From Dichomitus squalens LYAD-421 SS1 (Eukaryota > Basidiomycota > Agaricomycetes > Polyporales > Polyporaceae), in contig NW_006766908.1 of the NCBI RefSeq assembly GCF_000275845.1, positions 325,385 through 343,198 of the forward strand: a stretch of DNA of 17,814 bases, read 5' to 3'. This document shows positions 2,848-17,814 of the stretch, one piece after another. Each line of letters opens with the position of its first letter. Within the stretch, counting starts at the first letter, position 1. A model generated the notes under the pieces. It was not told where the DNA came from. It searched no databases and worked only from the letters and a program-made list of their open reading frames with translations. The translations under genes were made by a program, and so were the position numbers.

Positions 2848-5800
2848 ATGCCTGCTGAAGGAAAAATTCGCTGTGATGTGCCCGGTTGTTGTGGCCAGCT
2901 AGTCACCCGAAAGACGCTCCGAGCGCACCGTTCCGGACGTGCTCCTATCCTCCTACGGGCCTCTATTGCAGAAGCACGAGCTGAACAACGTCCACAGCCC
3001 ATTAGTGACCCTTCACGCCGTGTCACCCGCTGTCTCGATCCCCGACAGCCTTCTCTTTCACCTCCGTCAATCTCCGTGCCTTTGCCGTCCGTTCAGATGC
3101 CTGAGGTGGATATGGACTTTGGATACATGGATGCTGACCGAGAAGCGGATCCTGGTATGTCAATCGATTCAGTGTACTCTATTATGCTGCATGCAGTCAA
3201 TGATTGATCATTTCCTAGGCCTACTGAATGATGCAGAGGCTGCAGATAGCATTGGCATCGCTGAAGTGGAGCAAACAATGCAAGAACAGATCTGGTGCAG
3301 GTCTCAGTTCCGTACAACGGTGGAGGACTCCTCAGATGACGAGGATGAAGGCATTTCTCTGGCTAGAGATCACAATCTGCACCCTCGACTGGGAGACGAT
3401 CCCTATCATGGTTGTAGAGATGACGATGAGAGTTTTGAAGACGAGTTTGAGGCTATTTCCGTGTGGGATCAGCTGGCAGAAGCTCTGATTAGGGCAGGGA
3501 TCGTGACAGGTGCGCAAATGTATGCTATAGAAGCTTTGCGGATGCTGACATCTTCCTTGATAAGCTGAAGATCTCTCCGAAGAGGATCTACAATATCTAC
3601 GAGCGTTTTCTCTCAAGGTTTCAGAGCACATGCCCGGTCGCACGTTTGCCAAGCTTCCATACGTCTTCCCTACGTCGAAGCTTGGTACTTGGAAGCAGGT
3701 ACAGTCACGCGTTGCCGAGCTGTCTGGATTCGAGCCGAAAGTGTACCATTGCTGCGTCAATTCATGTTGCTGCTTTGTGGGCCCCCATGTGAACCTCAAC
3801 AAGTGTCCGTTCTGTGATGAGTCACGCCTCAATTCCCGTAATCAGCCTCGACAAGTCTTCGTATACCTCCCCCTCATTCCCCGCCTCAAAGCGATGCTGA
3901 GCAATCAAGAGCTAGCAACTCTGCTTCTATGGTGAGCTCGTGGACATGTACACACCCCTGGTGTGATCAAGGATGTCATGGATTCATTACACTATCGGTC
4001 CCTTTGCAACCGTCGCGTCCAGATCGGTGGGAAGACACTGCCTCATAGGTATTTTCAGGACGATCGTGACATTGCCATTGGCCTTTCCACAGACGGTTTC
4101 GCCCCTTTCAAACGTCGCAGCAAGACAGCATGGCCACTTCTTGCTGTCATCTACAACCTTCCGCCAGAGATCCGCAACAAACTCGAGCACATCCTTGGGT
4201 TAGGCGTGATTCCGGGTCCTCGCAAACCTGATGACATGGATTCCTTCCTTTGGCCGTTCAGCCAGGAGATGCTCCAACTAGCCATTGGCGTTCACACCTA
4301 CGACTGTCTCACCGATGACTTCTTTGCTCTACGGGTGTTCCTCTTACTTGTCTTTAGCGACATTCCAGCGATCTCGATAATTATGCGCATGAAGGGGCAC
4401 AACGCCCTCGTGCCATGCCAGATGTGCAATATCCATGGTATCCGAATACCAGACTCCCGGAATCTGATCCATTACGTCCCCCTTGATCGCAGCCACCATC
4501 CTGACGTCCGGTCATATCCTGACACTGTGCAGGTGTACGATCCCCTTTCTCTTCCCCTTCGGTCTCATGCGCAGATTCTCTCTCAAGCACGAGAAGTTCA
4601 ATCAGCCCTCACAGGTGCTGAAGCGGAGCGTCTTGCCAAGCAGTACGGCATTAAAGGTCTTCCCCTCCTCAGCGCCCTAGACTCCCTCTCATTTCCTGCC
4701 TCCTTTCCATACGATTTCATGCACCTCATCTTTGAAAACGTCATAAAGAACCTGATGAACCTTTGGAGTGGGAACTACAAGGATCTCGATGATGGTCTTG
4801 AGAATTACGAGCTCAAATCGGCAATCTGGGAGGATATCAGCGCCGCAAGCGAGGAGTCAGGTTTGTACATCCCATATGTGTATGGCCTCCGCCCACCCAA
4901 TGTCGCAAGCGATAAGACGTCCTGGACAGCAGACACACGATCATTCTGGATGCAATACATTGGACCTGTACTCCTCAAAGGGCGATTTGCGCAGCCTAAG
5001 TATTATGAACATTACCTCTTATTCGTCCACCTGGTTCGAAAATGTCTCCAGTGGGAAGTTTCGTCAGCAGATGTCCAGTACATCCGGGAGGGGTTCGCAC
5101 AATGGGTGACAACCTATGAACAGTGCGTGTATTAATAGCATGACAGCCTCTGACTGACTTTCAAACCTTATCGCACAGGTACTACTATCAGACGGACCCA
5201 CGACGGCTATCGACGTGTCCCCTCACCATTCATGCTCTCCTTCACACTGCTGACAGCATACGGGACATCGGACCTGTGTGGGCTGCATGGGCATTTCCCA
5301 TGGAGCGGTATTGCGGCTCGCTACAGCCTGCAATTCGGAGCAGACGGTTCCCATATGCTTCGCTCAACCGGTACGTACTGGACAAGGCACGGCTCGATCA
5401 TATCAAGCTTCGTTATGGCAGCACGCTCCGCACTCATCTAACGCTTCATGCCCCACTTGGAGTTCTACCAACATCTGTTGAAGGATGTACGTTGCCTTCA
5501 TTCTGATCTTAGCATCCTTGTTGACATGTAACTGACCACAGATACATCACTTGTCCTACTCCCATCTTCTCGTACCGTGGTCCTGGACCGTGGCACCCAA
5601 ACCAAGATCATTGGTGCGTTGTGCACTCGCTTCACAACTGCAGCGCCCTCCATCATACGTCAAGCCCTGCCCACTGAAGTGGAGGAATGGGCGAAGTTCC
5701 GCATCCTGAATGATGGTGATACCATTCGTTCAGCGGCACTGGATGCTGTGGCAGGGGACAGCCGTAATGCAAGCTACGTGCGGGTACGTTAAAGACTCCC

Positions 5801-7448: not shown

Positions 7449-7665
7449 GCCCTTTCCCCTTAATGCCTTCCCCTTTTGTCTACATGACCGGACCCTGAGT
7501 CCGACCCTGACCCTTTCCCTTTTCGGCTACATTACTTTACCCTGACCCAGATCCGGACCCTTGTTGCACCCGTTTCCCCTTTCGGTTACATGACCCGACC
7601 CTGATCTAGACTCAGGACCCTGTCCCACCTCTATCCCCTTTCAGTTATACCACAGGACCCTGACC
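7449..7665 (+). repeat. C-rich imperfect tandem subrepeats in LTR 1
   Basis: About four imperfect copies share the pattern CCCYTTTC-GG-TACATGACC-GACCCTGA. They begin near 7471, 7517, 7577 and 7636, so the spacing is about 46-60 bp. They lie upstream of the TATA box in the presumed U3, a usual place for enhancer repeats. Copies differ by several bases and small gaps, which suggests age. Confidence 0.6.
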
Positions 7666-7782
7666 TAGGTCGCATACTATACTGGGCCCAGCCTCGACCA
7701 GACGTGTTCCCTTACAGTCTCCCTGTACCTCCCTACTTTTGTCGGTTCCCTTTGCCTTCCTAATACGATCAGTACCCCATAG

Positions 7783-8012: not shown

Positions 8013-10748
8013 GTGGCGCGCTCTATTCGTCAACTCACAGACCAACTTCGACGAATGCACAACCGTGACCACACTACAATCGGCGAGTTCTTGGACAACG
8101 AAGTAGTCATCCACAACCACAACCGCACCCCTGAGGAGCATCGAGTGTTCGACCTAGTATGGCGCCAGGCCACACCAGCAGATACTGAACATTTGATTTG
8201 ACAGCTAGAGGAAGCATACAGATGTGCGACCTACCAGGAGAGATTACTCCTCGATCAACTAGTAGCACCGACACCTCAGAGACAGGCATCTATCGAACTC
8301 ATCCGTCAACAGATGCTTGACCAGATCGGAAGGGCTCATGCACGAGCCATCCTTCACAGCCCAGTTTGGAACGAATATCACCAAAGTATCGGCTCTTGGG
8401 CACCAAACCAGGCAAGCCTCGAATTCACTATCCTTGATGAACTCGAGCATTGGGTACTCCGTGACGATGGGTACGACACGGACAATGAACTACCATTGCT
8501 CGTTAACACCAAGCAAGGATCATCGGCAGGCAACCCTCCAAGCCCCGAACCACTAGACATCCTCTCTCTCCTTACAAGAATTTGGGACAACGCAAGCGCG
8601 TTGTACAACATCACCAACCACCATCTGACCCTTACCCGGATCTCCAAGCAAGCACACATCCAGGTTCTCATCGAACAAGTTCAACTGGTCATCAACACCC
8701 TTCACAACCTCCAACGGCTCATCAGCCCACTCCTCCCTCCTATTCCCATCAGTCACGATCCAGAAGAACACCACAGATCTGGTTACTTTACTGCTTGAAT
8801 TCGCGAACAGGCCAAGAATCTTCGTAACATACAGAGTCTTTTGGACCCGGACTTTGCCGAACACTGCCGACGCCTACATCTACTCGTTGGGGCCAGGGAA
8901 CTTTACGAATCTCACTGGCACATCATTCGAAACAGATACGAGTCCCCTGACGCTAGTTCCGATTCCGAGTATTTGGCGACTCTACGCAACTTCCACCTGG
9001 ACTAGGTACCCCTCCGCATAAATACGCAACGGACCGATCGCGCCCAACGCATTCACCGATACGACCCAGAGAATCAACGCGACATCAGCTTCAATAGAGA
9101 AGGACAGAACAAGCGCAATTGCAACAACCATCTGTGCCCCAACCGGTACAACGGACAGAGCAGCCCCAACATCACAACCGGAAACGCGCCTCAGAAAAGG
9201 CAGGAAGCACTCATCCGAACGACTTGGGCCCTCAGTCAAACGGCAGCCCCCTCCCCTCCACGTAGCCCTGCTACCCATCGAACCAGTTCCCTACCGGACG
9301 TAGTGAACGAACCTACTGAGGCTACCCTTCTGTCGGAAGACAACCCCGCTCCTCGAAACGACGAGGACATCGCCACCCCCCTTTACAATCTTCTCTGAGG
9401 ACAACCGGATGAACTAGACAGCGACACAGACACCACTATGTCCGCAACACAGCAAGAACAAGCTCAGACCCAGAGCTCCTCGTTCCGTGCAACGAACGAG
9501 CCAAGCGTCCCAGATGTACCACCGCATTCTAGCCTCCCCAGTTTCCAGCTCGGAAGCGTGTTCACCCCTCAAGACAGCATCTCCTCGCTACGCCAGGCGA
9601 TAGGGGCCCAACCCGGCCAAACCACTCGCTATGCCAGCAGTGGGACCCCGACAGCACAACCCATGATACCACCTACTACTGCTGTACTGCCTAGTTGCCC
9701 ACCTACACCCACTGGTCTGCCTCGAGGACCTGGCGGACCTCCGCAGGGCGGCGGACCTCCTCAGGGACCTGGTGGACCTCCGCAAGGTGGCGGACCACCT
9801 CTGAGAGGTGGACCTCCTCAAGGACCTGGTGGACCACCACCTGTGGCACCTCTCGGCATACCAGGGGTCGCTGCTGGACGAACCAAAGTCCGCACACCCA
9901 ATGTTTTTGATGGTCGCGACAATCTACGCACCTTCCTCAATGAACTCTTCCTGTTCTTTGAGGCACGTCTAGCCGACTACGCCACAGACCAGAGCCACAT
10001 TGTCACCGCCTTAACGTTCATGGACAGACCAAAGGTGATCGCTTGAAAGGATGGGTACATCGCTCAGGCCCAATGAAACGGTTGGAACACCTAGAACACA
10101 TTCAAAACTGTCTTACAACAGACCTTCCAACCCATTGAGGAAGCCGCTACAGCAGCCTCCAAGCTGTACCACCTCGAATATCGACCTGCCGCACCAGACA
10201 CCTTCAATGCGGAGTTCTTCCACCTCTGTGCCATAGCCAGCATACTCGAAGACAGTGCTCAGCTGTCCCTCTACAAGGAACGTCTCCCAGAAAGCATGCG
10301 ATGACATGTTCGCCTCACCTACCCCATTCCCACCACCATTAACGAGTGGGCAGCACAGGTACTAGAGATCGAACACTCCAACTACGAAGAATGACACCTG
10401 CGCCAGCTCGAGGGACGCTCTCGCGATGACCGACAGGGTCAAGGCTCGAAGGGACAGTCTGTCCGTACCAACTCCATACGACAGGTTGACACTCCAGCCA
10501 TGAAGGAAGACAGAGAGAAGAAGCAGTGCTTCTACTGCCACAAGACTGGTCACATCGCACACGACTGCCTTAAGAAGAAGGTGGACAACCACGCCAAGGG
10601 ACGACAGCCTGGACAGAAGAAGCGCAAGGTGCGCAAGGTCGATGAACTAGAGGATGGCCAGGTCGCCGACGACGAGGACAATGGCGACGAGACGCCTGAC
10701 AAAACGATCAGCCAGGTCGACGTAGACGATTCGGATGAGGGTTTTTGA
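8013..10748 (+). pseudogene. gag of gypsy element 1, unusually long, nine in-frame stops
   Basis: One frame runs from 8013 to the TGA at 10746, about 911 codons, with no indel. It is broken by stops at 8199, 8796, 9003 (TAG), 9396, 10044, 10074, 10092 (TAG), 10302 and 10392; the rest are TGA. The first codon is GTG, so the original ATG may be lost (ATG to GTG). From N to C: a helical, charged region of about 460 residues (ARSIRQLTDQLRRMHNRDHT onward); a Gln/Ser-rich start at ATG 9438; a Gly-Pro repeat (9726-9842); a retrotransposon gag domain (NVFDGRDNLRTFLNELFLFF, and later QTFQPIEEAA..YHLEYRP); a CCHC zinc knuckle CFYCHKTGHIAHDC near 10530-10571; and a basic then acidic tail ending SDEGF. 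Gag packages element RNA in virus-like particles. The normal fungal gypsy gag is about 300-450 residues, so the N-terminal extension is odd. Confidence 0.82.
9726..9842 (+). repeat. Gly-Pro coding minisatellite in gag 1
   Basis: Repeated 9-27 bp units (GGACCTGGTGGACCTCC and variants) encode GPGGPPQGG-like repeats. They separate the N-terminal extension from the gag domain and probably form a flexible linker. Unit copies differ by silent changes. Confidence 0.85.
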
Positions 10749-10780
10749 ACGGGCAGCCTTCGCCAACAGAAGAACTGCCC
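10739..10780 (+). promoter_or_regulatory. Programmed -1 frameshift signal, element 1
   Basis: The gag end reads GAG GGT TTT TGA. The heptamer G GGT TTT (10739-10745) fits the canonical X XXY YYZ slippery pattern, and the protease frame is exactly -1, entering at TTG 10745. Five bases after the heptamer a stem-loop follows: GGGCAG (10751-10756) pairs with CTGCCC (10775-10780), with an inner CTTC/GAAG stem. The same heptamer plus TGA ends gag in element 2. Confidence 0.75.
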
Positions 10781-11090
10781 TCTGACTGTATTAGTATCTC
10801 GTTCGTTGCCACTACAGAACGACGACATCAATCTATTCTTATCCCGGGCAGCATCGAGTACGAGTCAACAAGCATCGGAGCTCATGCGTTCATCGATTGC
10901 GGAGCAAGTGCTTCTCTCATTAACCAGAACTTTGCCAAGAAGCACAAACTCCCTCTCATCACCCTACCCTCTCCCCTTTGTTTTGCCAATGTCAATGGCA
11001 CTGCCAACACGGCCGGACCAGTCACCCACAAATTCATAGGCCATTTCCGAATCAACAGCCACGAGTTCCCTACAGAACTCTACGTCGCGG
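10745..11090 (+). pseudogene. Protease N-terminal part of pol, element 1 (interrupted)
   Basis: The frame is entered by -1 frameshifting from gag. It shows a retropepsin-like start: FIDCGASASLINQNFAKKHKL, where the catalytic motif would normally be D-S/T-G-A, so the residue after Asp is Cys here. A mid-domain block (PLCFANVNGTAN) and HEFPTELYVA follow. Reading breaks at 11090/11091, where the 2032-bp insertion begins, and continues in frame at 13127 after the insertion and one GCGG copy are skipped. Confidence 0.8.
11087..11090 (+). repeat. Target-site duplication, left copy (GCGG)
   Basis: GCGG stands directly before TGTC at 11091. The matching copy is at 13123-13126, directly after GACA. 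With one copy and the insertion removed, ELYVA joins DCGQVDIIL in frame, as expected for a gypsy protease C-terminus. Confidence 0.75.
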
Positions 11091-11784
11091 TGTCGTACTT
11101 CTCGAGGTTTGGGTGTGAGAAGAGTTTATATAACAACTCTCTAAATGTTTGGGTGAGGGGTGAATCTCAGCTCTCTATAAACCTAAGAAGCTCTGCCACA
11201 AGGTGTATGGGGTTTCCTGTTTTTCCAAAATTGACCTCGTCGAGTTCGGGTTGGTTGCAGTTGTATTTGACGATTCTGACAAAAGTATGTGCAATACTGT
11301 CTAGCTTTATGGCACTGTGTGTGCGTACTCTGACTATGTAGACCGTTCACTGGCTCCACAGACTCCGTTCACAACTTTTTCGGGTGTACTGATTGTTCCG
11401 GCAGAGTTTCCTCTATATCCGGCTGTTCTATGCAGTCTGTGCTTGTTCCGCAACTCTATCTGAGACTCTTTCTGTCTTACCTATGCTGACTAGCCCTCTG
11501 ACTATCAGCTGACCTGAGTGTTACCAATTGCTAAACCCCAGGAATCCGATCCTGCTAAGGTCCAACTGACTAACACTAACACTGTACTTACTTCAACTGC
11601 CGAGTCAATATGTCTCTCCCCTCTTAGGAAAGGCTATACAACTCTCAACTGATATGAAACTAGACTTTCTAGCCTTACTATCAATTGCTTATGCAGTTAC
11701 TGAACACTTGCTTTAAGCACACTTGCTTTTGAACTGGTGAATTCTTGACTGATTTAATTCTCTTTTGGGGGGCACTTTCAGTCC

Positions 11785-11796
11785 GGTATATATACC
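11785..11796. promoter_or_regulatory. Palindromic TATA element in the insertion
   Basis: GGTATATATACC is a perfect 12-bp palindrome containing a TATA box readable on either strand. It is 12 bp from the nearest heat shock element (11809), on the proximal side for minus-strand transcription. Confidence 0.5.
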
Positions 11797-11808
11797 TTTC
11801 TGAAGACC

Positions 11809-11821
11809 TTCCAGAATGTTC
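11809..11821. promoter_or_regulatory. Heat shock element, three perfect units
   Basis: TTCCAGAATGTTC is TTCnnGAAnnTTC, a perfect three-unit binding site for trimeric HSF. Confidence 0.65.
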
Positions 11822-11907
11822 TATCTAGCTTACAAAAGTCTATTCTAGTGTCTTACTAAGCGCTTACTAATTTCTGACTAATCGCTTACTAATCCCTACT
11901 AATATTC

Positions 11908-11920
11908 TTCCGGAACCTTC
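11908..11920. promoter_or_regulatory. Heat shock element, three perfect units
   Basis: TTCCGGAACCTTC is TTCnnGAAnnTTC. A degenerate HSE-like row (GAG-TTC-TGA-TTC, correct 5-bp register) also lies at 11974-11991. Confidence 0.6.
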
Positions 11921-12113
11921 TCCAACATGCCTGAGATACTCCAGGACCTAGTAGAATAATCTGGTACGTGCTGGAGTATTCTGTGATCTTCTAGCTCATT
12001 CTATTATGTTATCCATGGACTATTGGTCTTATGTTGAGTCATGCCTAGTAGATTGATAAGCAGGCAAGTCCCTATGAGCTTTATATGAGACCATTTTCTT
12101 GCATAAAAGTCTG

Positions 12114-12151
12114 GAATGTTCTGGAACTTTCTGTAATGTTCTGGAATATTC
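12114..12151. promoter_or_regulatory. Heat shock element array, eight units in register
   Basis: GAA and TTC triplets alternate every 5 bp through eight positions (12114, 12119, 12124, 12129, 12134, 12139, 12144, 12149). Seven are perfect and one (12134) is TAA. This is a strong, canonical HSF site able to hold more than one trimer. The 10-bp periodicity also makes it a short tandem repeat, so slippage may have extended it. Confidence 0.75.
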
Positions 12152-12220
12152 TCCACCTTGTTCCCCAGTTCTGAAAGATGCTTAGTCAACTGTTACCCTT
12201 TATGGTTATATACCAGGACA

Positions 12221-12233
12221 TTCTAGAACGTTC
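12221..12233. promoter_or_regulatory. Heat shock element, three perfect units
   Basis: TTCTAGAACGTTC is TTCnnGAAnnTTC. A fourth degenerate unit (GGA, 12216-12218) precedes it in register. Confidence 0.65.
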
Positions 12234-12442
12234 TATGATCATAGCCTGCACATGTTTCTCCCAAACACTTAATCAATCCAAGCTCAGATACGCAAGTTGT
12301 CACTCTAGCCTGCAGTTTCACGTCCATTGATGTAACTACCAAACAAGTCCTGTCTGATTCTTGTGTAACTATACAGGACTATACGTGGCCTGAACCTCGT
12401 CATTGATCTCCCAATCATTTGCGATAGGGTCGAGGGAGACAC

Positions 12443-12961
12443 CTAACAACTTATGAGTTTTCTGTACTCAAATGGCAAACAGTGCGGCTCGCCTGGAAGA
12501 TAGTCTTCGTTATCTGGTTTCCGCAGGATCTTGACTCTGCTGACCACATTCCAAACCACTTGCGCCCACCAGGAACTCGTGTCACTGACAAAGTACTCGT
12601 ATGGTACAGCGAGGCTAAGGATCGCCGGCAACTGAATGTGTTGTACGAGCACGATGACGCGGCTCTCCTGATACTCGGCTACTCGAAGGACTCGACCAAG
12701 AAAGTGTACATCCTTAGGCAATGTCCAACCCGGCTCTAACTTGCTCGGAAGGATAAGCCAACATGGGGTATCGGGAGGCGGAATTGGACCAAATGGGCGC
12801 GTTTCCGGCACACGAATCTGCGGAGTGTAGAAGTGAAGATGGTGAGAGTCCTTGCGTACAATTACCGGGCAGCGGATGATTTTGTCCAAGTTGAGGTGGT
12901 CCGAGAGGTATGGGATTATCTCGTCGGGGATTGTGAGGGTCTGTCGGGGGACGGTAGACAT
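12443..12961 (-). CDS. Hypothetical protein, antisense ORF inside the insertion
   Basis: I do not recognise the family. The ORF runs from ATG 12961 (MSTVPRQTLTIPDEII) to the stop at 12443, 172 residues; an upstream in-frame ATG at 12976 would add five. Composition is protein-like: Pro-, Val- and Trp-containing, with blocks such as RPFGPIPPPDTPCWLILPSK, DVHFLGRVLRVAEYQESRVI and WWAQVVWNVVSRVKILRKP. No signal peptide or clear membrane segment is seen. It lies wholly within the 2032-bp insertion, near its right end. The HSEs and the TATA box lie beyond its 3' end, so they do not form its own promoter. It could be an ORF embedded in a long LTR, a captured host fragment, or a chance frame. Confidence 0.45.
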   Translation of the reverse strand: MSTVPRQTLTIPDEIIPYLSDHLNLDKIIRCPVIVRKDSHHLHFYTPQIRVPETRPFGPIPPPDTPCWLILPSKLEPGWTLPKDVHFLGRVLRVAEYQESRVIVLVQHIQLPAILSLAVPYEYFVSDTSSWWAQVVWNVVSRVKILRKPDNEDYLPGEPHCLPFEYRKLISC

Positions 12962-13122
12962 GATGGGAGGTGCCACATCACAAAATATGGACCCACCGTT
13001 TTACGCCTTTTTTGATGTTTGACGCCTGTGGTTATGTGATAGGTTCCGATTATTACTAATCACATGATTATGTAGCTCGTTGTAAGCCATGTCCAGGTGC
13101 CAATCCATTTTGGTGCCTGACA

Positions 13123-13126
13123 GCGG
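13123..13126 (+). repeat. Target-site duplication, right copy (GCGG)
   Basis: Right partner of the GCGG at 11087-11090. A four-base duplication, or five bases with one diverged, is within the usual 4-6 bp range of LTR-retrotransposon integrases. Confidence 0.75.
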
Positions 13127-14437
13127 ACTGCGGTCAGGTCGACATTATACTTAGAATGCCATGGCTAGTCCAGTACAACCCTCACATCGACTGGGTTCAG
13201 GGCAAGGTCCATTTTGATGCCAAATATCTACGGGTGGAACAGCGACTTTGGGAATACCACCAACACCCCTCAGGGAACCCCTGTCGACACCTGACTACCT
13301 TCCTTCACGGCGACATCTATCCCGAATGGAACCCCTCTGCCACCATCCGATGACTTATCATCGGAAACACCCCCATCGCCTGCACCACCGTTTCGACCCA
13401 ACTGGATGTCATAGCAGGGTCGAAGGCAGCCAACGTCAAGGCTAGCGTAGTCATCTCGGACTACCTCAAAACCTATCAACAGGTGTTTGAGAAGAAGGCA
13501 GCTGAACGAATGTCCAAGCCCCGGGCCTGGGATCACCCCATCGACCTGCGGCCCGACTTCAAACTCCGGGACTGCAAGCTGTACCCCCTGTCCCCACTCA
13601 AGATGCAGAAACTTCAGAAGTTCATTGACGAGAGCCTAGCCATGGGGTACATCCGCCCATCCACCTCACCGATGGCATCCCCGTTCTTCTTCGTGGATAA
13701 GAAGGACGGCTCCATGCAACCCGTCCAAGACTACCGCTACCTCAATTCTGGCACGATCAAGAATGTCTACCCCCTCCCCCTGATCAACGACCTCATCAAC
13801 AAGTTGCAAAGGGCCAAGTACTTCATGAAGTTGGATGTTTGTGCTGGCTACAACAACGTCCGCATCAAAGACGGTGACCAGTGGAAGGCGGCCTTCAAGA
13901 CCCCCCTCGGACTCTATGAGCCAACTATAATGTTCTTTGGGTTATGCATCGCCCCGGTGACGTTCGAGGTGATGACAAACAACGGCTTCAAGGACATGAT
14001 CACTGAAGGATAGATTATCATCTATATGGACGACATTCTGATATTCTCCAAAACGGAGGACGTCCACCATCGTCAAACGCAGCGGGTCGTTCAGCGTCTC
14101 ATCGAAATGGACCTGTTCCTCAAGCGCGAGAAGTGCGTGTTCGACGCTAGTGAAGTCGAGTTCCTGGGCACCATCATCCGTGAAGGATTGCTTGGCATGG
14201 ACCTAGTAAAGCTCGATGGCATCCGCGCCTGGCCTGTACCCACCACCGTCAAACAAGTCCAGAGCTTCCTCAGATTCTGCAACTTCTACCGACACCTCAT
14301 CCGTGACTACAGCAAGATCACTCGACCACTCACACAACTCATCCGGAAAGATCTACCCTTCCAATGGATGCCCGAATGTCAGGTTGCATTTGACATGCTT
14401 CGCAACCTCTTCCAGCAAAAGTCCATTCTTTGCATGG
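13123..14437 (+). pseudogene. pol of gypsy element 1: protease end, linker, reverse transcriptase (truncated)
   Basis: After the insertion the same frame continues: DCGQVDIILRMPWLVQYNP..IDW, where the usual ILGMPWL has Gly to Arg (GGA to AGA). A linker follows, then [63 protein letters not shown], the [12 protein letters not shown] block and the catalytic YMDDILIFS near 14023-14050. The thumb/connection follows (EFLGTIIREG, FLRFCNFYRHLIRDYS). Stops are TGA at 13351 and TAG at 14011, the latter probably TGG to TAG just before YMDD. Reading ends at 14437, where element 2's LTR begins, before RNase H. RT copies element RNA into DNA. Confidence 0.9.
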
Positions 14438-14872
14438 TGTCATGAACCGCCCCCATGGGGCTATGTTTCCCATTCCATTCAGACCACACTGCCTTGTATG
14501 TTCATCTATTGTTCTCTATCCAGCATGGTGTTCCCTTGTTTGCACACGGACAATAGCTCCCCTTGTGCTCCCCTTCGCTATTGTCCTACGCCCTTGTACT
14601 CAGTGCCCATGGCAACGCCATTGTCCCCTTAGCGCCCATTGTTCGTTCCTCGTATATAGTCGGATACCTTGCTATCTGGAGACTCTAGTTTCGACCTCTT
14701 GTCTCCAGGTAAGCCGTTGTGTATTTCGCTCTGTGAATACTTTGCTCAATACACACATTGTCTCCAGTCCTGCCTGTTGAGCTCCGCTCCAGTCTCACTG
14801 CGATCAGAGCTCGTCGGCGCTCCTGCCTGCCTCGCTCGTCTCTACTTACTCGCTCGACAGTCAGTCATAACA
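14438..14872 (+). repeat. 5' LTR of gypsy element 2, 435 bp
   Basis: The LTR starts TGTCATGA and ends TCATAACA, an inverted repeat with 7 of 8 bases matched. It carries TATATA at 14653-14658 and a predicted transcription start near 14686. Two bases (TT) separate its end from the primer site. The short open frames within it are not coding. Confidence 0.85.
14653..14658 (+). promoter_or_regulatory. TATA box of LTR 2
   Basis: TATATA lies 33 bp upstream of 14686, the start of the segment that pairs with the primer-binding site. The spacing matches LTR 1. Confidence 0.65.
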
Positions 14873-14874
14873 TT

Positions 14875-14886
14875 AGGTCGAAACTA
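14875..14886 (+). other. Self-priming primer-binding site, element 2
   Basis: AGGTCGAAACTA is the exact reverse complement of TAGTTTCGACCT at 14686-14697, at the predicted mRNA 5' end. Twelve of twelve bases pair. This is the Tf1-type arrangement in which the element primes itself instead of using a tRNA. Confidence 0.8.
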
Positions 14887-15068
14887 CCTCACAGGCACCA
14901 GCGCCCTCCCACGTTTAACACTCCGTTTATCACTGTCTCCCCCACCTTTTTATCCTGGATTGTAGCCCGTTTTTCAACAGCTTTCATCCCATCGCCGTAG
15001 AAGACCAGCACTACAACCACAACTATCAGCGGTGGCACATCTGCCCGAGCCAACCCTGCCCTCACCGG

Positions 15069-16349
15069 TTGGACAACGGGGTCGACAGCGGTACCGACTG
15101 GTCCCAATTCCCACACCACATACGACCTGAGGCGGACGAAGGAGCGCTCATCCAGGTTCGCTTAGCGACTCCCCTCCCAACGACAACTGAGTCAGGATGG
15201 CCGCTACGAGCAGCTGTACTCACGTCCATCAGCCTACCAGGGACTAGACAGCCCAGTCGCTCAGCAACCCGCGCCCCAAGCCGTATCCCTAGCCCAGGTG
15301 GCTCTCCCCGAACTGAGTCTCCTGCCGGAGGATCTTGTATCCCGCTCGACACCACTATCTCGCTCGTCACCAATCGTCTAGAACGACGAGCTTCAGGTGC
15401 GTTTGAACCTCCGGAAACCACCGAACCACCCCCGAGACCCCCACGAAACCCATCACGCTCCGAATCAAGCGTGCAATCCCCTCGTAGTCCATCCCCCACC
15501 ATGTCAGCCATCGACTCCAAGCTTCTCAGCCAACTCGCACCCAGAGACTACAATGGCAAGGAAGCTCAGGCCGGACTCCGCTTCGCTGCCATGGCCAAGC
15601 TTTACCATACGCAGCTGGTGGCTTCGTCGATCGCGGCCAACCTCGCATGGATCATGGTATTGAACAAGTTAACGGACGACGCCGCTCGATGGGCTGGGCC
15701 CCACATCATCGATCTCGCCGACGGCAAGGTCGTTTGGTCGAACGTGGATGCCTTTGAGACGGCCTTCAAGGCCCACTTCTGCGCAGTCGACAACAAGAAG
15801 GCTACGCTCTCCGAACTTGTCAAGCTGTGCAAGGCATTGCACAAGCTCGGCACGGCCAAGGACTACACAGCAAACTTCAACGCTATCGCGGCACGCACTC
15901 CGCTCTCCGACGAGGACAAGCGGGTGCGCTATGTAGATGGTTTGCCGTACAAGATTCAGAATGAGTTCGCGGTCACGGTGCACGAGGTCGACACACTAGA
16001 GAAGGCGCAGAAGGTCGCCCTGCGCATGGATCAGCAACTGGCTGAACGCGCCGAGGCGATGCCCAAGAACAAGGGCTGGGGCCGCCGTGGTGAACGAGTG
16101 GCAGCGGACTGACGTGGACCTGAGGAACGGTCCTGCTTCAACTGTGGCGAGAAGGGCCACATCCAGCAGAACTGCAGAAAGCCCCCGCGGGGACAGCAAG
16201 CAGCCGCGTCCACTGCCACTCCACCCAACCCCACCCCATCCTTGAACCCCTTGGCCTCGGACGAGCTGGTGGCTCTCCGTTCGCAGCTCAAGGAGCCCAG
16301 CAATCGCATTGCCGCCGTCAGCTTCGCCAAGGAGAAGGAGGGTTTTTGA
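15069..16349 (+). pseudogene. gag of gypsy element 2, one in-frame TGA, N-terminus unresolved
   Basis: The frame is open from before 15069 to the TGA at 16347, apart from TGA at 16110-16112. The first in-frame ATG is 15501 (MSAIDSKLLSQLAPRDYNGK). The Pro/Ser-rich sequence before it is in frame but has no ATG, and other frames there also hold gag-like stretches (for example TSARANPALTGWTTG), so upstream frameshifts are possible. The gag domain spans 15501 to about 16060 (AWIMVLNKLTDDAARWAGPH, FETAFKAHFCAVDNKKATLS, YVDGLPYKIQNEFAV). After the TGA, which sits where CGA (Arg) is expected, comes the CCHC knuckle CFNCGEKGHIQQNC at about 16134-16176. A short helical tail ends KEKEGF at the frameshift heptamer. 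Confidence 0.82.
16340..16349 (+). promoter_or_regulatory. Programmed -1 frameshift heptamer, element 2
   Basis: G GGT TTT at 16340-16346 is followed at once by the gag stop TGA. The protease frame is exactly -1 and begins TTG ATC at 16346. The codon context GAG GGT TTT TGA is identical to element 1. Downstream pairing is weak: CAGC 16353-16356 with GCTG 16367-16370. A pseudoknot was not resolved by eye. Confidence 0.7.
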
Positions 16350-16875
16350 TCTCAGCCACACTGGACGCTGCGCGTGCGGGCTCGTGTACCAATAGTCGCT
16401 ATGCTGTACTGGGATTGTCGTTAATCTATGAAGTCGACCATGCGGGTCACCACTTCCATATCCCTATACGACTGAGTGGCAAGCAGCGGAGCAAGGAGCT
16501 GGTGGCCATGGTCGATTCTGGTGCCACCACAAAGCTCCTCCACAGACGATTTGTGGCACGGAACCAGGTCATGACGAGGAAGCTGGTGAAGCCTATTCCT
16601 CTGTACAACATCGATGGATCGGAGAACCGAGACGGCACGATCACGGAAGTGGCTGTTCTCACTATGAAGATCGACGACCACGAGGAAGAGGTCGCATTCG
16701 TCGTCACAGACATCAGAGAAGAAGACGTGATCATCGGGCTGGACTGGCTGCGCGAACACAATCCGGAGATAGACTGGGAGCGTGGTTCGCTACGCCTGTC
16801 ACGATGCCCCAACGCCTGCCCAGCGACCCACAAGGCATCCAAACCAGTGGAGACTGAGGCGTGTGATACGGGGGG
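16346..16875 (+). CDS. Protease part of pol, element 2
   Basis: The aspartic protease has an intact active site: MVDSGATTKLLHRRFV (D-S-G-A) at about 16509-16556. A flap/core follows (PIPLYNIDGSENRDGTITEV), and the second conserved block is EDVIIGLDWLREHNPEIDWE at about 16721-16780. It is entered by -1 frameshift from gag and has no ATG of its own. After SRCPNACP the frame continues in a low-similarity linker to a G6 run at 16870-16875. Beyond it this frame stops at 16958, while the RT frame is +1 relative to it. One extra G in the run explains the shift. Confidence 0.85.
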
Positions 16876-17814
16876 TACGGCCTATGGCGCGCACAAGGTC
16901 TCCATGGGTAAGAAAAGCACGAACGGTGGGGCGTGTTTGCGGTACGGTAATGGTCAATGAGGCCGAAGACGAACCTCTCCTACCTCCAGCTGAAGAAGAG
17001 TGGGATGGTACAGAACAGTCTCTCATCGACGCTTGGCACAAGGGCCGAACACTCCGTGGTGCACCGCAACTCTTCGTATCGGCCAGTCACACCTACTCGC
17101 AGCAGCTCGCCAAACAAGAGTATGCCAAACGGGAAGTTCAAACCGTCGATGAGATGGTCCCACCGGAGTACCGAGAGCACATGCGCCTGTTTTCTAAGGA
17201 GGCCGCGGATAGACTCCCAGAACACCGCCCCTATGACCACACCATCGAACTGGTTCCTGGCGCGCAGACCTTCCACTCAAGGCTTTACCCGTTGTCCCCC
17301 AGCGAGCAGGTCGAGCTCGACAAGTTCCTGCAGGAGAACCTGGCCAAAGGCTACATTCGTGAGTCGAAATCCCCGATGTCCTCACCCTTCTTCTTCGTCA
17401 AGAAAAAGGACGGCAGCCTACGACCGGTCCAAGACTATCGACGGCTGAACGCCATCACGGTGAAGAATCGGTACCCACTTCTGCTCATCGCAGAACTCAT
17501 GGACCGGCTCAAGAACGCCAAGATCTATATGGTGCTCGATGTTCGCTGGGGCTACAACAACATCCGGATTAAGACCGGCGACGAATGGAAGGCCGCGTTT
17601 ACGACCAATCGAGGACTGTTCGAGCCTACGGTTATGTTCTTCGGGCTCACCGGCTCCCCCAGCACGTTCTCCGCATTCATGAACGACATCTTCAAGGACC
17701 TTATCATCGAAGGAAAGATCACCGTGTACCTGGACGACATACTCATCTTCGGTAGTGACCTTACGGAACATCGCAAGGTCGTGCACGAGGTCCTCAGACG
17801 ATTAGAAGCGAACG
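16876..17814 (+). pseudogene. Reverse transcriptase part of pol, element 2 (runs off window)
   Basis: The reading frame has codons starting at 16953 (VNEAEDEPLLPPAEEEW) and is open to the right edge. RT motifs in order: HTIELVPGAQTFHSRLYPLS, GYIRESKSPMSSPFFFVKKK, DGSLRPVQDYRRLNAITVKN, MVLDVRWGYNNIRI, MFFGLTGSPSTFSAFMNDIF and the catalytic YLDDILIFG near 17728-17754. No stop is seen in this part, which makes element 2 the better-preserved copy. It is +1 shifted relative to the protease frame, so gag-pol is broken in this copy unless the G6 run is a sequencing error. Confidence 0.88.

What the first reader, a model, noticed from the sequence alone, without database searches (positions are those of the whole stretch)
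10739..16349. Identical -1 frameshift junction in two diverged gypsy elements
Both gag genes end GAG GGT TTT TGA (10737-10748 and 16338-16349), and in both the protease frame is exactly -1, entering at TTG right after the heptamer G GGT TTT. Both gags end in E-G-F. In element 1 a 6-bp stem (GGGCAG/CTGCCC) with an inner CTTC/GAAG stem starts 5 nt downstream, the usual -1 frameshift layout. Conservation between elements whose proteins differ widely argues for selection on the shift site. The structure after element 2's site looks weak by eye.
Basis: partly seen in the sequence, partly recalled or inferred. Interest (0 to 1): 0.78.

Follow-up and report, generated by a model that had tools for sequence, protein, structure and literature searches.

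The report
Ribosomal frameshift site in fungal retrotransposons
Two decayed jumping genes in a wood-rotting fungus share a short slippery sequence at which ribosomes are expected to slip back one base to make their enzymes; other jumping-gene families in the same genome carry different versions of the same kind of site, so this is a new example of a known mechanism.

Summary
Both gag frames end GAG GGT TTT TGA (10737-10748, 16338-16349), the protease frame is -1, and GGGTTTT sits in phase at 10739-10745 and 16340-16346. In element 1 the -1 frame has a stop at 10736-10738, so a tandem slip has one possible phase, and that is GGGTTTT. In the host genome (probably Dichomitus squalens or a near relative; inference) I could read seven -1 gag/protease families: three use GGGTTTT, others GGATTTT, GGGAAAA, AAAAAAC, and one an unusual GTCTTTT; an eighth is single-frame. 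Of 49 gag relatives of element 2, 32 end in Glu-[Gly/Asp/Asn]-Phe, each codable as a slippery heptamer followed at once by the stop (codons not seen). Element 1's stem is conserved in 7 of 8 copies; element 2's family has none detectable. This is standard -1 programmed frameshifting, already reported for fungal Ty3/gypsy elements: new members of a known kind. No actual frameshifting is shown. Oddest: the GTCTTTT-stop family, and GGGTTTT families without local structure.

The parts
9438..10748 (+). gag frame of element 1 (family A), decayed: stops at 10044, 10074, 10092, 10302, 10392; true end TGA 10746-10748
   Evidence: a homologous copy P0020 matches Ty3_capsid PF19259 just above cut-off
10736..10738 (+). 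stop codon (TGA) in the protease (-1) frame directly before the heptamer; leaves one phase for a tandem slip
10739..10745 (+). slippery heptamer G GGT TTT of element 1
10746..10748 (+). gag stop codon TGA of element 1, abutting the heptamer
10751..10780 (+). stem-loop 5 nt after the heptamer (GGGCAG 10751-10756 / CTGCCC 10775-10780, inner CTTC 10758-10761 / GAAG 10769-10772)
10745..11090 (+). protease frame of element 1 up to the insert, -1 relative to gag
   Evidence: RVP_2 PF08284 above cut-off
15069..16349 (+). gag frame of element 2 (family B), one internal stop at 16110; true end TGA 16347-16349; 15069 is the first start codon of the open frame, real start not established
   Evidence: best homologue a Dichomitus squalens protein, 93% over 59% of the query
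16340..16346 (+). slippery heptamer G GGT TTT of element 2
16347..16349 (+). gag stop codon TGA of element 2, abutting the heptamer
16346..16957 (+). protease frame of element 2, -1 relative to gag; next stop at 16958
   Evidence: PF13975, PF08284, PF09668 above cut-off

Best explanation
Each junction is a programmed -1 ribosomal frameshift site that sets the ratio of Gag to Gag-Pol in a Ty3/gypsy LTR retrotransposon. Most ribosomes read GAG GGT TTT and stop at TGA, making Gag. A minority slip back one base on G_GGU_UUU (Gly and Phe tRNAs re-pair to GGG and UUU), read UUG as Leu, and continue into protease and RT. In element 1's family a stem-loop 5 nt downstream, at the mRNA entry of the ribosome, is the likely stimulator. 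In element 2's family no local structure is evident, so the heptamer alone, the stop codon right behind it, or a distant element would have to suffice. Shown: sequence, frames, phase, recurrence across families, predicted stem in family A. Inferred: the slip, its efficiency, the role of the stem. The two window copies themselves are decayed.
For: Exact phase and frames. Over 27 junction copies, canonical in-phase heptamers in 15 and GGATTTT in 4 more; the 8 without are 6 copies of family D, L013 and L027. Background 5 of 3537 positions canonical, 6 of 3537 with the looser set. The 10 copies that end E-G-F (families A, B, C) all use GAG GGT TTT, although GGT is 36 of 228 Gly codons, TTT 14 of 54 Phe codons and GAG 158 of 256 Glu codons in the pooled background; for three families the chance given the amino acids is about 1.6e-5. 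32 of 49 gag relatives end E-[GDN]-F; none of the other 17 ends in F. In 7 of 8 family A copies there is no Met in the protease frame before the active site (the eighth, L016, is out of frame), and element 2's first is residue 55, just before DSGA, so re-initiation is unlikely. Stem in family A: 7 of 8 copies z -2.5 to -3.9 in the 45-nt fold, L016 z -1.0. G_GGU_UUU is named among the most shift-prone sites with mammalian ribosomes (PMC5009743, passages).
Against: No translation data. Families B, C and D show no local structure better than shuffles in the folds; element 2 folds worse than 193 of 200 shuffles. Family D keeps the layout with GTCTTTT, which is not a classical heptamer, in 6 of 6 copies. 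The family A signal fades in 100-nt folds (z +1.3 to -2.5), and its stem shows no compensatory change; shuffles score as well, because the copies are too alike. Wide overlap windows in B and C (64-79 positions in L026, L028 and L018) make a heptamer somewhere in them less surprising; L028 has a second one. Some copies of B, C, E and G have an early Met in the protease frame (L028, L018, L036, L055). Both window copies are broken. E-G-F could in part be kept for the protein.
Confidence: 0.88

Rival explanations
1. The shared junction is inherited sequence kept for the Gag C-terminus (E-G-F as protein motif or protease cleavage site); the -1 frame of pol is reached by other means.
For: All 32 gag relatives that end in F have E two places before it; many of them are copies within Dichomitus or Ganoderma sinense, so they are not independent.
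Against: Codons are the slippery ones although GGT and TTT are minority codons; families E, F and G have quite different gag ends but again a heptamer in phase; the second-last residue is only G, D or N, each codable as GGG/GGA/AAA + UUUU.
Confidence: 0.05
2. Pol is expressed from a spliced mRNA or by re-initiation, not by frameshifting.
For: Fungal mRNAs are often spliced (general knowledge); not tested with RNA data here. An early Met exists in the protease frame of some copies of other families (L028, L018, L036, L055).
Against: No Met in the protease frame before the active site in 7 of 8 family A copies, and only at residue 55 in element 2; the heptamer recurs across families with different letters; in family A the -1 frame is closed by a stop 10 nt before the gag stop. 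No splice-site scan was run.
Confidence: 0.04
3. The -1 offset is a fossil indel in dead copies and the site means nothing.
For: Both window copies carry premature stops.
Against: The same offset and site in independent copies and in three families, with long open frames on one or both sides in several copies.
Confidence: 0.01
4. One-tRNA slip at the stop: the Phe tRNA in the P site slips UUU to UUU while the stop codon waits in the A site, so no tandem slip or RNA structure is needed (families A-D).
For: In families A, B, C and D the last sense codon is TTT (TCT in L013) followed by a stop, and by definition each of the 32 E-[GDN]-F gags ends directly at its stop. Would explain family D (TCT TTT TAG), where the first codon cannot re-pair well, and the lack of structure in B-D.
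Against: The XXX part is kept as GGG, GGA or (by amino acid) AAA in most families, which this model does not need; families E and F have their heptamer 5 and 1 codons before the stop.
Confidence: 0.15

Closest known systems
Fungal Ty3/gypsy elements with pol in -1 (Tf1/sushi group; Verticillium VdLTRE2-4)
   Same: gag and pol in -1 relation. PMC10085805 (passages) states that Tf1/sushi elements outside fission yeast predominantly use programmed -1 frameshifting, reclassifies grasshopper as -1, mentions a programmed frameshift in Tcn1, and lists marY1 and MAGGY in its figure; PMC3441728 (passages) reports -1 for three Verticillium families
   Different: In the passages seen, no slippery sequence or structure is given, and the entries for marY1 and MAGGY themselves were not seen; membership of the window's elements in that group was not tested
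Classical retroviral, coronaviral and plant-virus -1 sites (G_GGU_UUU, A_AAA_AAC, G_GA variants)
   Same: Same heptamers; 5-6 nt spacer and a predicted stem downstream in families A, E, G; review PMC5009743, passages
   Different: No structure found for families B, C, D; host is a basidiomycete
Rous sarcoma virus gag-pol and barley yellow dwarf virus polymerase sites (recalled, no call)
   Same: Heptamer directly followed by the zero-frame stop codon, as here in families A, B, C, D, G
   Different: Unrelated genomes; those have known downstream structures (recalled)
Survey of gag/pol recoding in LTR elements, Gao et al. 2003 RNA 9:1422 (paper not held; known through PMC5009743 passages)
   Same: As summarised there: -1 pol in 28 of 51 animal elements, many with classical heptamers, and both +1 and -1 in fungi
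   Different: I did not see the paper, so I cannot say which basidiomycete elements it covers

Membership tests
-1 programmed ribosomal frameshift site | Downstream frame is -1 to the upstream frame, with overlap | tested here: met
-1 programmed ribosomal frameshift site | X_XXY_YYZ heptamer in phase inside the overlap | tested here: met
   Elements 1 and 2; family D fails this in 6 of 6 copies
-1 programmed ribosomal frameshift site | Stimulatory structure 5-9 nt downstream | tested here: inconclusive
   Predicted in element 1, not in element 2
-1 programmed ribosomal frameshift site | Conservation of the site among copies and relatives | tested here: met
-1 programmed ribosomal frameshift site | Trans-frame product measured | not testable with these tools
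   no expression data
Ty3/gypsy (Metaviridae) LTR retrotransposon | Capsid-type gag, aspartic protease before RT | tested here: met
   RVP_2 and RVT_1 above cut-off in both; Ty3_capsid above cut-off only in family A copy P0020 (29.4 vs 29.1 bits), below it for gag 2 (25.2 vs 29.1 bits)
Ty3/gypsy (Metaviridae) LTR retrotransposon | RT upstream of integrase; LTRs | not tested
   window ends inside element 2's RT; LTRs and integrase not mapped
Tf1/sushi chromovirus group | Chromodomain at the integrase end, RT placement in that clade | not tested
   tree holds only this genome's families

The most novel reading that the evidence does not exclude
Within one lineage of polypore gypsy elements the shift site has lost its need for an RNA structure: a U-run abutting the gag stop (UUU-U-stop) lets the Phe tRNA slip while termination is slow, so Gag-Pol output would follow release-factor activity. 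Family D (TCT TTT TAG, GTCTTTT) would be the pure form, and elements such as family B would be on the way from a tandem heptamer to it.
Probability: 0.15. Interest if true: 0.6.

Novelty: new member of a known kind. Interest (0 to 1): 0.4.

Why it matters
It gives several predicted -1 frameshift cassettes from one basidiomycete genome, with heptamers that differ between families while the -1 relation and the place at the gag end stay. That is a natural series for asking how shift sites change letters in evolution and how much a downstream structure is needed. Practically, gene callers are liable to split or wrongly intron such genes; PMC10085805 (passage) reports such a wrong intron for Tcn1.

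Tried and rejected
Led nowhere: the viral-contig scan with element 2's protease found no relative; Rfam found nothing at gathering scores in window, L052, L054; homologues of family A gag were few, 7 proteins, of which only P0051 carries the same C-terminus. The covariation tests are not significant: family G, 186 of 500 shuffles reach the observed score; family A, 500 of 500. A pseudoknot that my crude search offered for six family A copies (L010-L015) is absent in element 1 and L016 and leans on G-U pairs; not claimed. The family C copy is not on the RT tree because tblastn gave no RT match for it. Rejected: stop-codon readthrough (pro is in another frame); fossil indel (same offset in many copies); +1 shift (frames are -1).

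Loci without a readable junction, left out of the count of 27: L017, L042, L043, L046, L053 (gag end not found in the stretch), L033 (masked), L037 (family E copy that has lost the heptamer stretch); L086 ends with its contig, and L088-L092 showed no -1 junction or were masked. L093 (family G) was read later.

I make no claim that these sites are absent from print.
Full report
Observation. The sequence holds what was described. GAGGGTTTTTGA lies at 10737-10748 and 16338-16349; GGGTTTT is 10739-10745 and 16340-16346; the protease frames run from TTG 10745 and 16346 and are -1 to gag. In element 1 the -1 frame is closed by TGA at 10736-10738, so a ribosome must change frame on GAGGGTTTT, and only one tandem-slip phase exists. 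In element 2 the last -1-frame stop upstream is at 16121, so its window is wider, 73 positions. Both copies are dead: gag 1 has stops at 10044, 10074, 10092, 10302 and 10392, gag 2 at 16110, and element 1's protease is split by an insert.

What the elements are. The protease pieces match RVP_2 and the RT pieces RVT_1 above cut-off; a family A gag copy (P0020) matches Ty3_capsid just above cut-off, and gag 2 matches it below cut-off. These are Ty3/gypsy elements. LTRs, integrase and chromodomain were not mapped. The best gag homologues are Dichomitus squalens proteins, 93% over 59% of gag 2 and 95% over 56% of P0020; that the host is this species or a close one is my inference. The two elements are distant: no significant protease match, gag relatives 25% identical, RT 57%.

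The site in the host genome. The 12-mer occurs 11 times in 40.3 Mb; the pattern read backwards 0 times. Nine of the 11 are gag/protease junctions (seven of family A, one of B, one of a third family C); the hits in L004 and L005 are not. Protease searches and gag searches led to 27 readable junction copies in seven -1 families; loci that could not be read are listed under Tried and rejected, and the searches score only the best candidates. Junctions: A G_GGT_TTT TGA (7 of 8; L013 has GGGTTCT); B G_GGT_TTT TGA or TAA (2 of 3; L027 has ACC TTT TAA); C G_GGT_TTT TGA (1 of 1); D G_TCT_TTT TAG (6 of 6); E G_GAT_TTT five codons before the gag end (4 of 4 counted; L035 has CGA where the others have the stop; a fifth copy, L037, has lost the stretch and was not counted); F G_GGA_AAA one codon before the stop (1 of 1); G A_AAA_AAC TAG (4 of 4, and a fifth copy L093 read later). 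One family A copy, L016, keeps the heptamer but has a one-base deletion further on. An eighth lineage, H, reads gag, zinc knuckle and protease in one frame in L065 and L075, with three and one scattered stops. So -1 shifting is not universal in this genome, and H serves as a control.

Chance. In-phase canonical heptamers occur at 5 of 3537 background positions upstream in the gag frame, 6 of 3537 with the looser set; copies are not independent and some are decayed. Canonical sites are found in 15 of 27 junction copies and GGATTTT in 4 more; 6 D copies, L013 and L027 have neither. The windows differ: one or two positions in A and F, seven in E, 14 to 61 in G, 64 and 79 in L028 and L018; in a wide window a heptamer somewhere is less telling, and L028 holds a second one. 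The three E-G-F families use GAG GGT TTT in all 10 copies ending E-G-F although GGT is 36 of 228 Gly, TTT 14 of 54 Phe and GAG 158 of 256 Glu codons in the pooled background; given the amino acids this has a chance near 1.6e-5 for three families. On an RT tree F groups with G (support 93/89) and H sits on a long branch (the root is a midpoint for drawing); A, B, D and E are unresolved, and C is missing. The two families with A_AA in the second codon thus group together and the others have U_UU: heptamers seem to change within one type. This is a reading from few families.

Relatives elsewhere. Of 49 gag relatives of element 2 (Dichomitus, Ganoderma, one Polyporus, unnamed environmental contigs), 28 end EGF, 3 EDF, 1 ENF; the other 17 end otherwise, none in F, and by eye lack or lose that segment. 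Several are copies from one genome. EGF, EDF and ENF can be coded as G_GGU_UUU, G_GAU_UUU and A_AAU_UUU, followed at once by the stop.

Structure. Family A: stem 5 nt after the heptamer, 45-nt folds z -2.5 to -3.9 in 7 of 8 copies, -1.0 in L016; in 100-nt folds z lies between +1.3 and -2.5. 97.7% of cells pair, but without compensatory change. Element 1 alone: -15 kcal/mol, z -2.29. Family E: stem of up to 11 bp 6 nt downstream, z -3.5 and -3.7 in two copies, -1.5 and -0.1 in the other two. Family F: z +0.8 at 45 nt, -1.6 at 70 nt, and 9 of 60 shuffles reach its best pseudoknot. Family G: stem of about 10 bp 5-6 nt downstream, z -3.2, -1.2, -2.2, -3.2. A crude pseudoknot search gave G scores that 0, 1, 0 and 0 of 60 shuffles and no neighbouring position reached, but with different pairings in different copies. 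The form I put forward (10-bp stem whose loop pairs over 9 bp with a downstream stretch) was put together by eye from the alignment; its 4-base link between the stems lay outside that search. Over 5 copies 92.6% of its cells pair, against 31.6 to 52.6% for slid versions, with one two-sided change; shuffles reach that in 186 of 500, so covariation is not shown. Families B, C and D show nothing beyond shuffles in the folds; one D copy (L030, 1 of 60 shuffles) stands out and the others do not. Element 2 folds worse than 193 of 200 shuffles.

Mechanism. The most likely course is tandem slippage on G_GGU_UUU, next codon UUG, giving a few Gag-Pol for many Gag. Slip, rate and stimulation are inferred. 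Re-initiation is unlikely: 7 of 8 family A copies have no Met in the protease frame before the active site, and element 2 has its first at residue 55; L028, L018, L036 and L055 of other families do have earlier ones. Splicing was not tested with RNA and no splice-site scan was run. The stop codon touches the heptamer in families A, B, C, D and G; this is also recalled for Rous sarcoma virus and barley yellow dwarf virus. Family D, with a first codon that cannot re-pair well, suggests that a one-tRNA slip at the stop may be enough; this is the boldest reading left open.

Known or new. The review PMC5009743 (passages) names G_GGU_UUU and A_AAA_AAC among the most shift-prone sites with mammalian ribosomes and G_GA as a natural variant, and says that in fungi +1 and -1 elements are less unevenly split than in animals. 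PMC10085805 (passages) says that Tf1/sushi elements outside fission yeast predominantly use -1 frameshifting; its figure lists basidiomycete marY1 and Tcn1. PMC3441728 (passages) has -1 families in Verticillium. The finding is therefore a good new example of a known kind; the family set and the structure-poor sites are the added interest.

Noticed in passing
11091-13122: A 2.03 kb insert in element 1's protease, beginning TG, ending CA, flanked by GCGG on both sides: looks like a solo LTR or non-autonomous LTR element. Its minus-strand ORF 12446-12976 has no Pfam match at E 0.01.
   Followed up: partly
3963-5135: 390-aa ORF matching Transposase_21 (tnp2, PF02992, 88.8 bits): looks like remains of a CACTA-type DNA transposon (the type is recalled).
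   Followed up: partly
1970-2075: Perfect CAG repeat, 35.3 copies with 100% matches, inside open frames that would code poly-Ser or, on the other strand, poly-Ala.
   Followed up: no
7466-7668: Overlapping 47- and 59-base tandem repeats of C-rich sequence.
   Followed up: no
9726-9801: Gly-Pro rich 18/39-base repeat in the N-terminal part of gag 1.
   Followed up: no
10044-10394: Premature stops in gag 1 face Trp or Arg codons of copy P0020 by eye, as expected from C-to-T decay on either strand.
   Followed up: partly
L029, L030, L031, L032, L038, L087: Family D: six copies with AAG TCT TTT TAG and protease in -1; GTCTTTT is not a classical heptamer.
   Followed up: partly
L052:1411-1494 and family G copies L054, L055, L085, L093: AAAAAAC followed by a candidate H-type pseudoknot (10-bp and 9-bp stems, put together by eye) at the gag/protease junction.
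   Followed up: partly
L065 and L075: A gypsy lineage with gag, CCHC and protease in one frame, interrupted only by scattered stops.
   Followed up: partly
16347-16446: The stretch after element 2's heptamer is less structured than its shuffles (194 of 200 fold at least as well); most family D folds also have positive z.
   Followed up: partly
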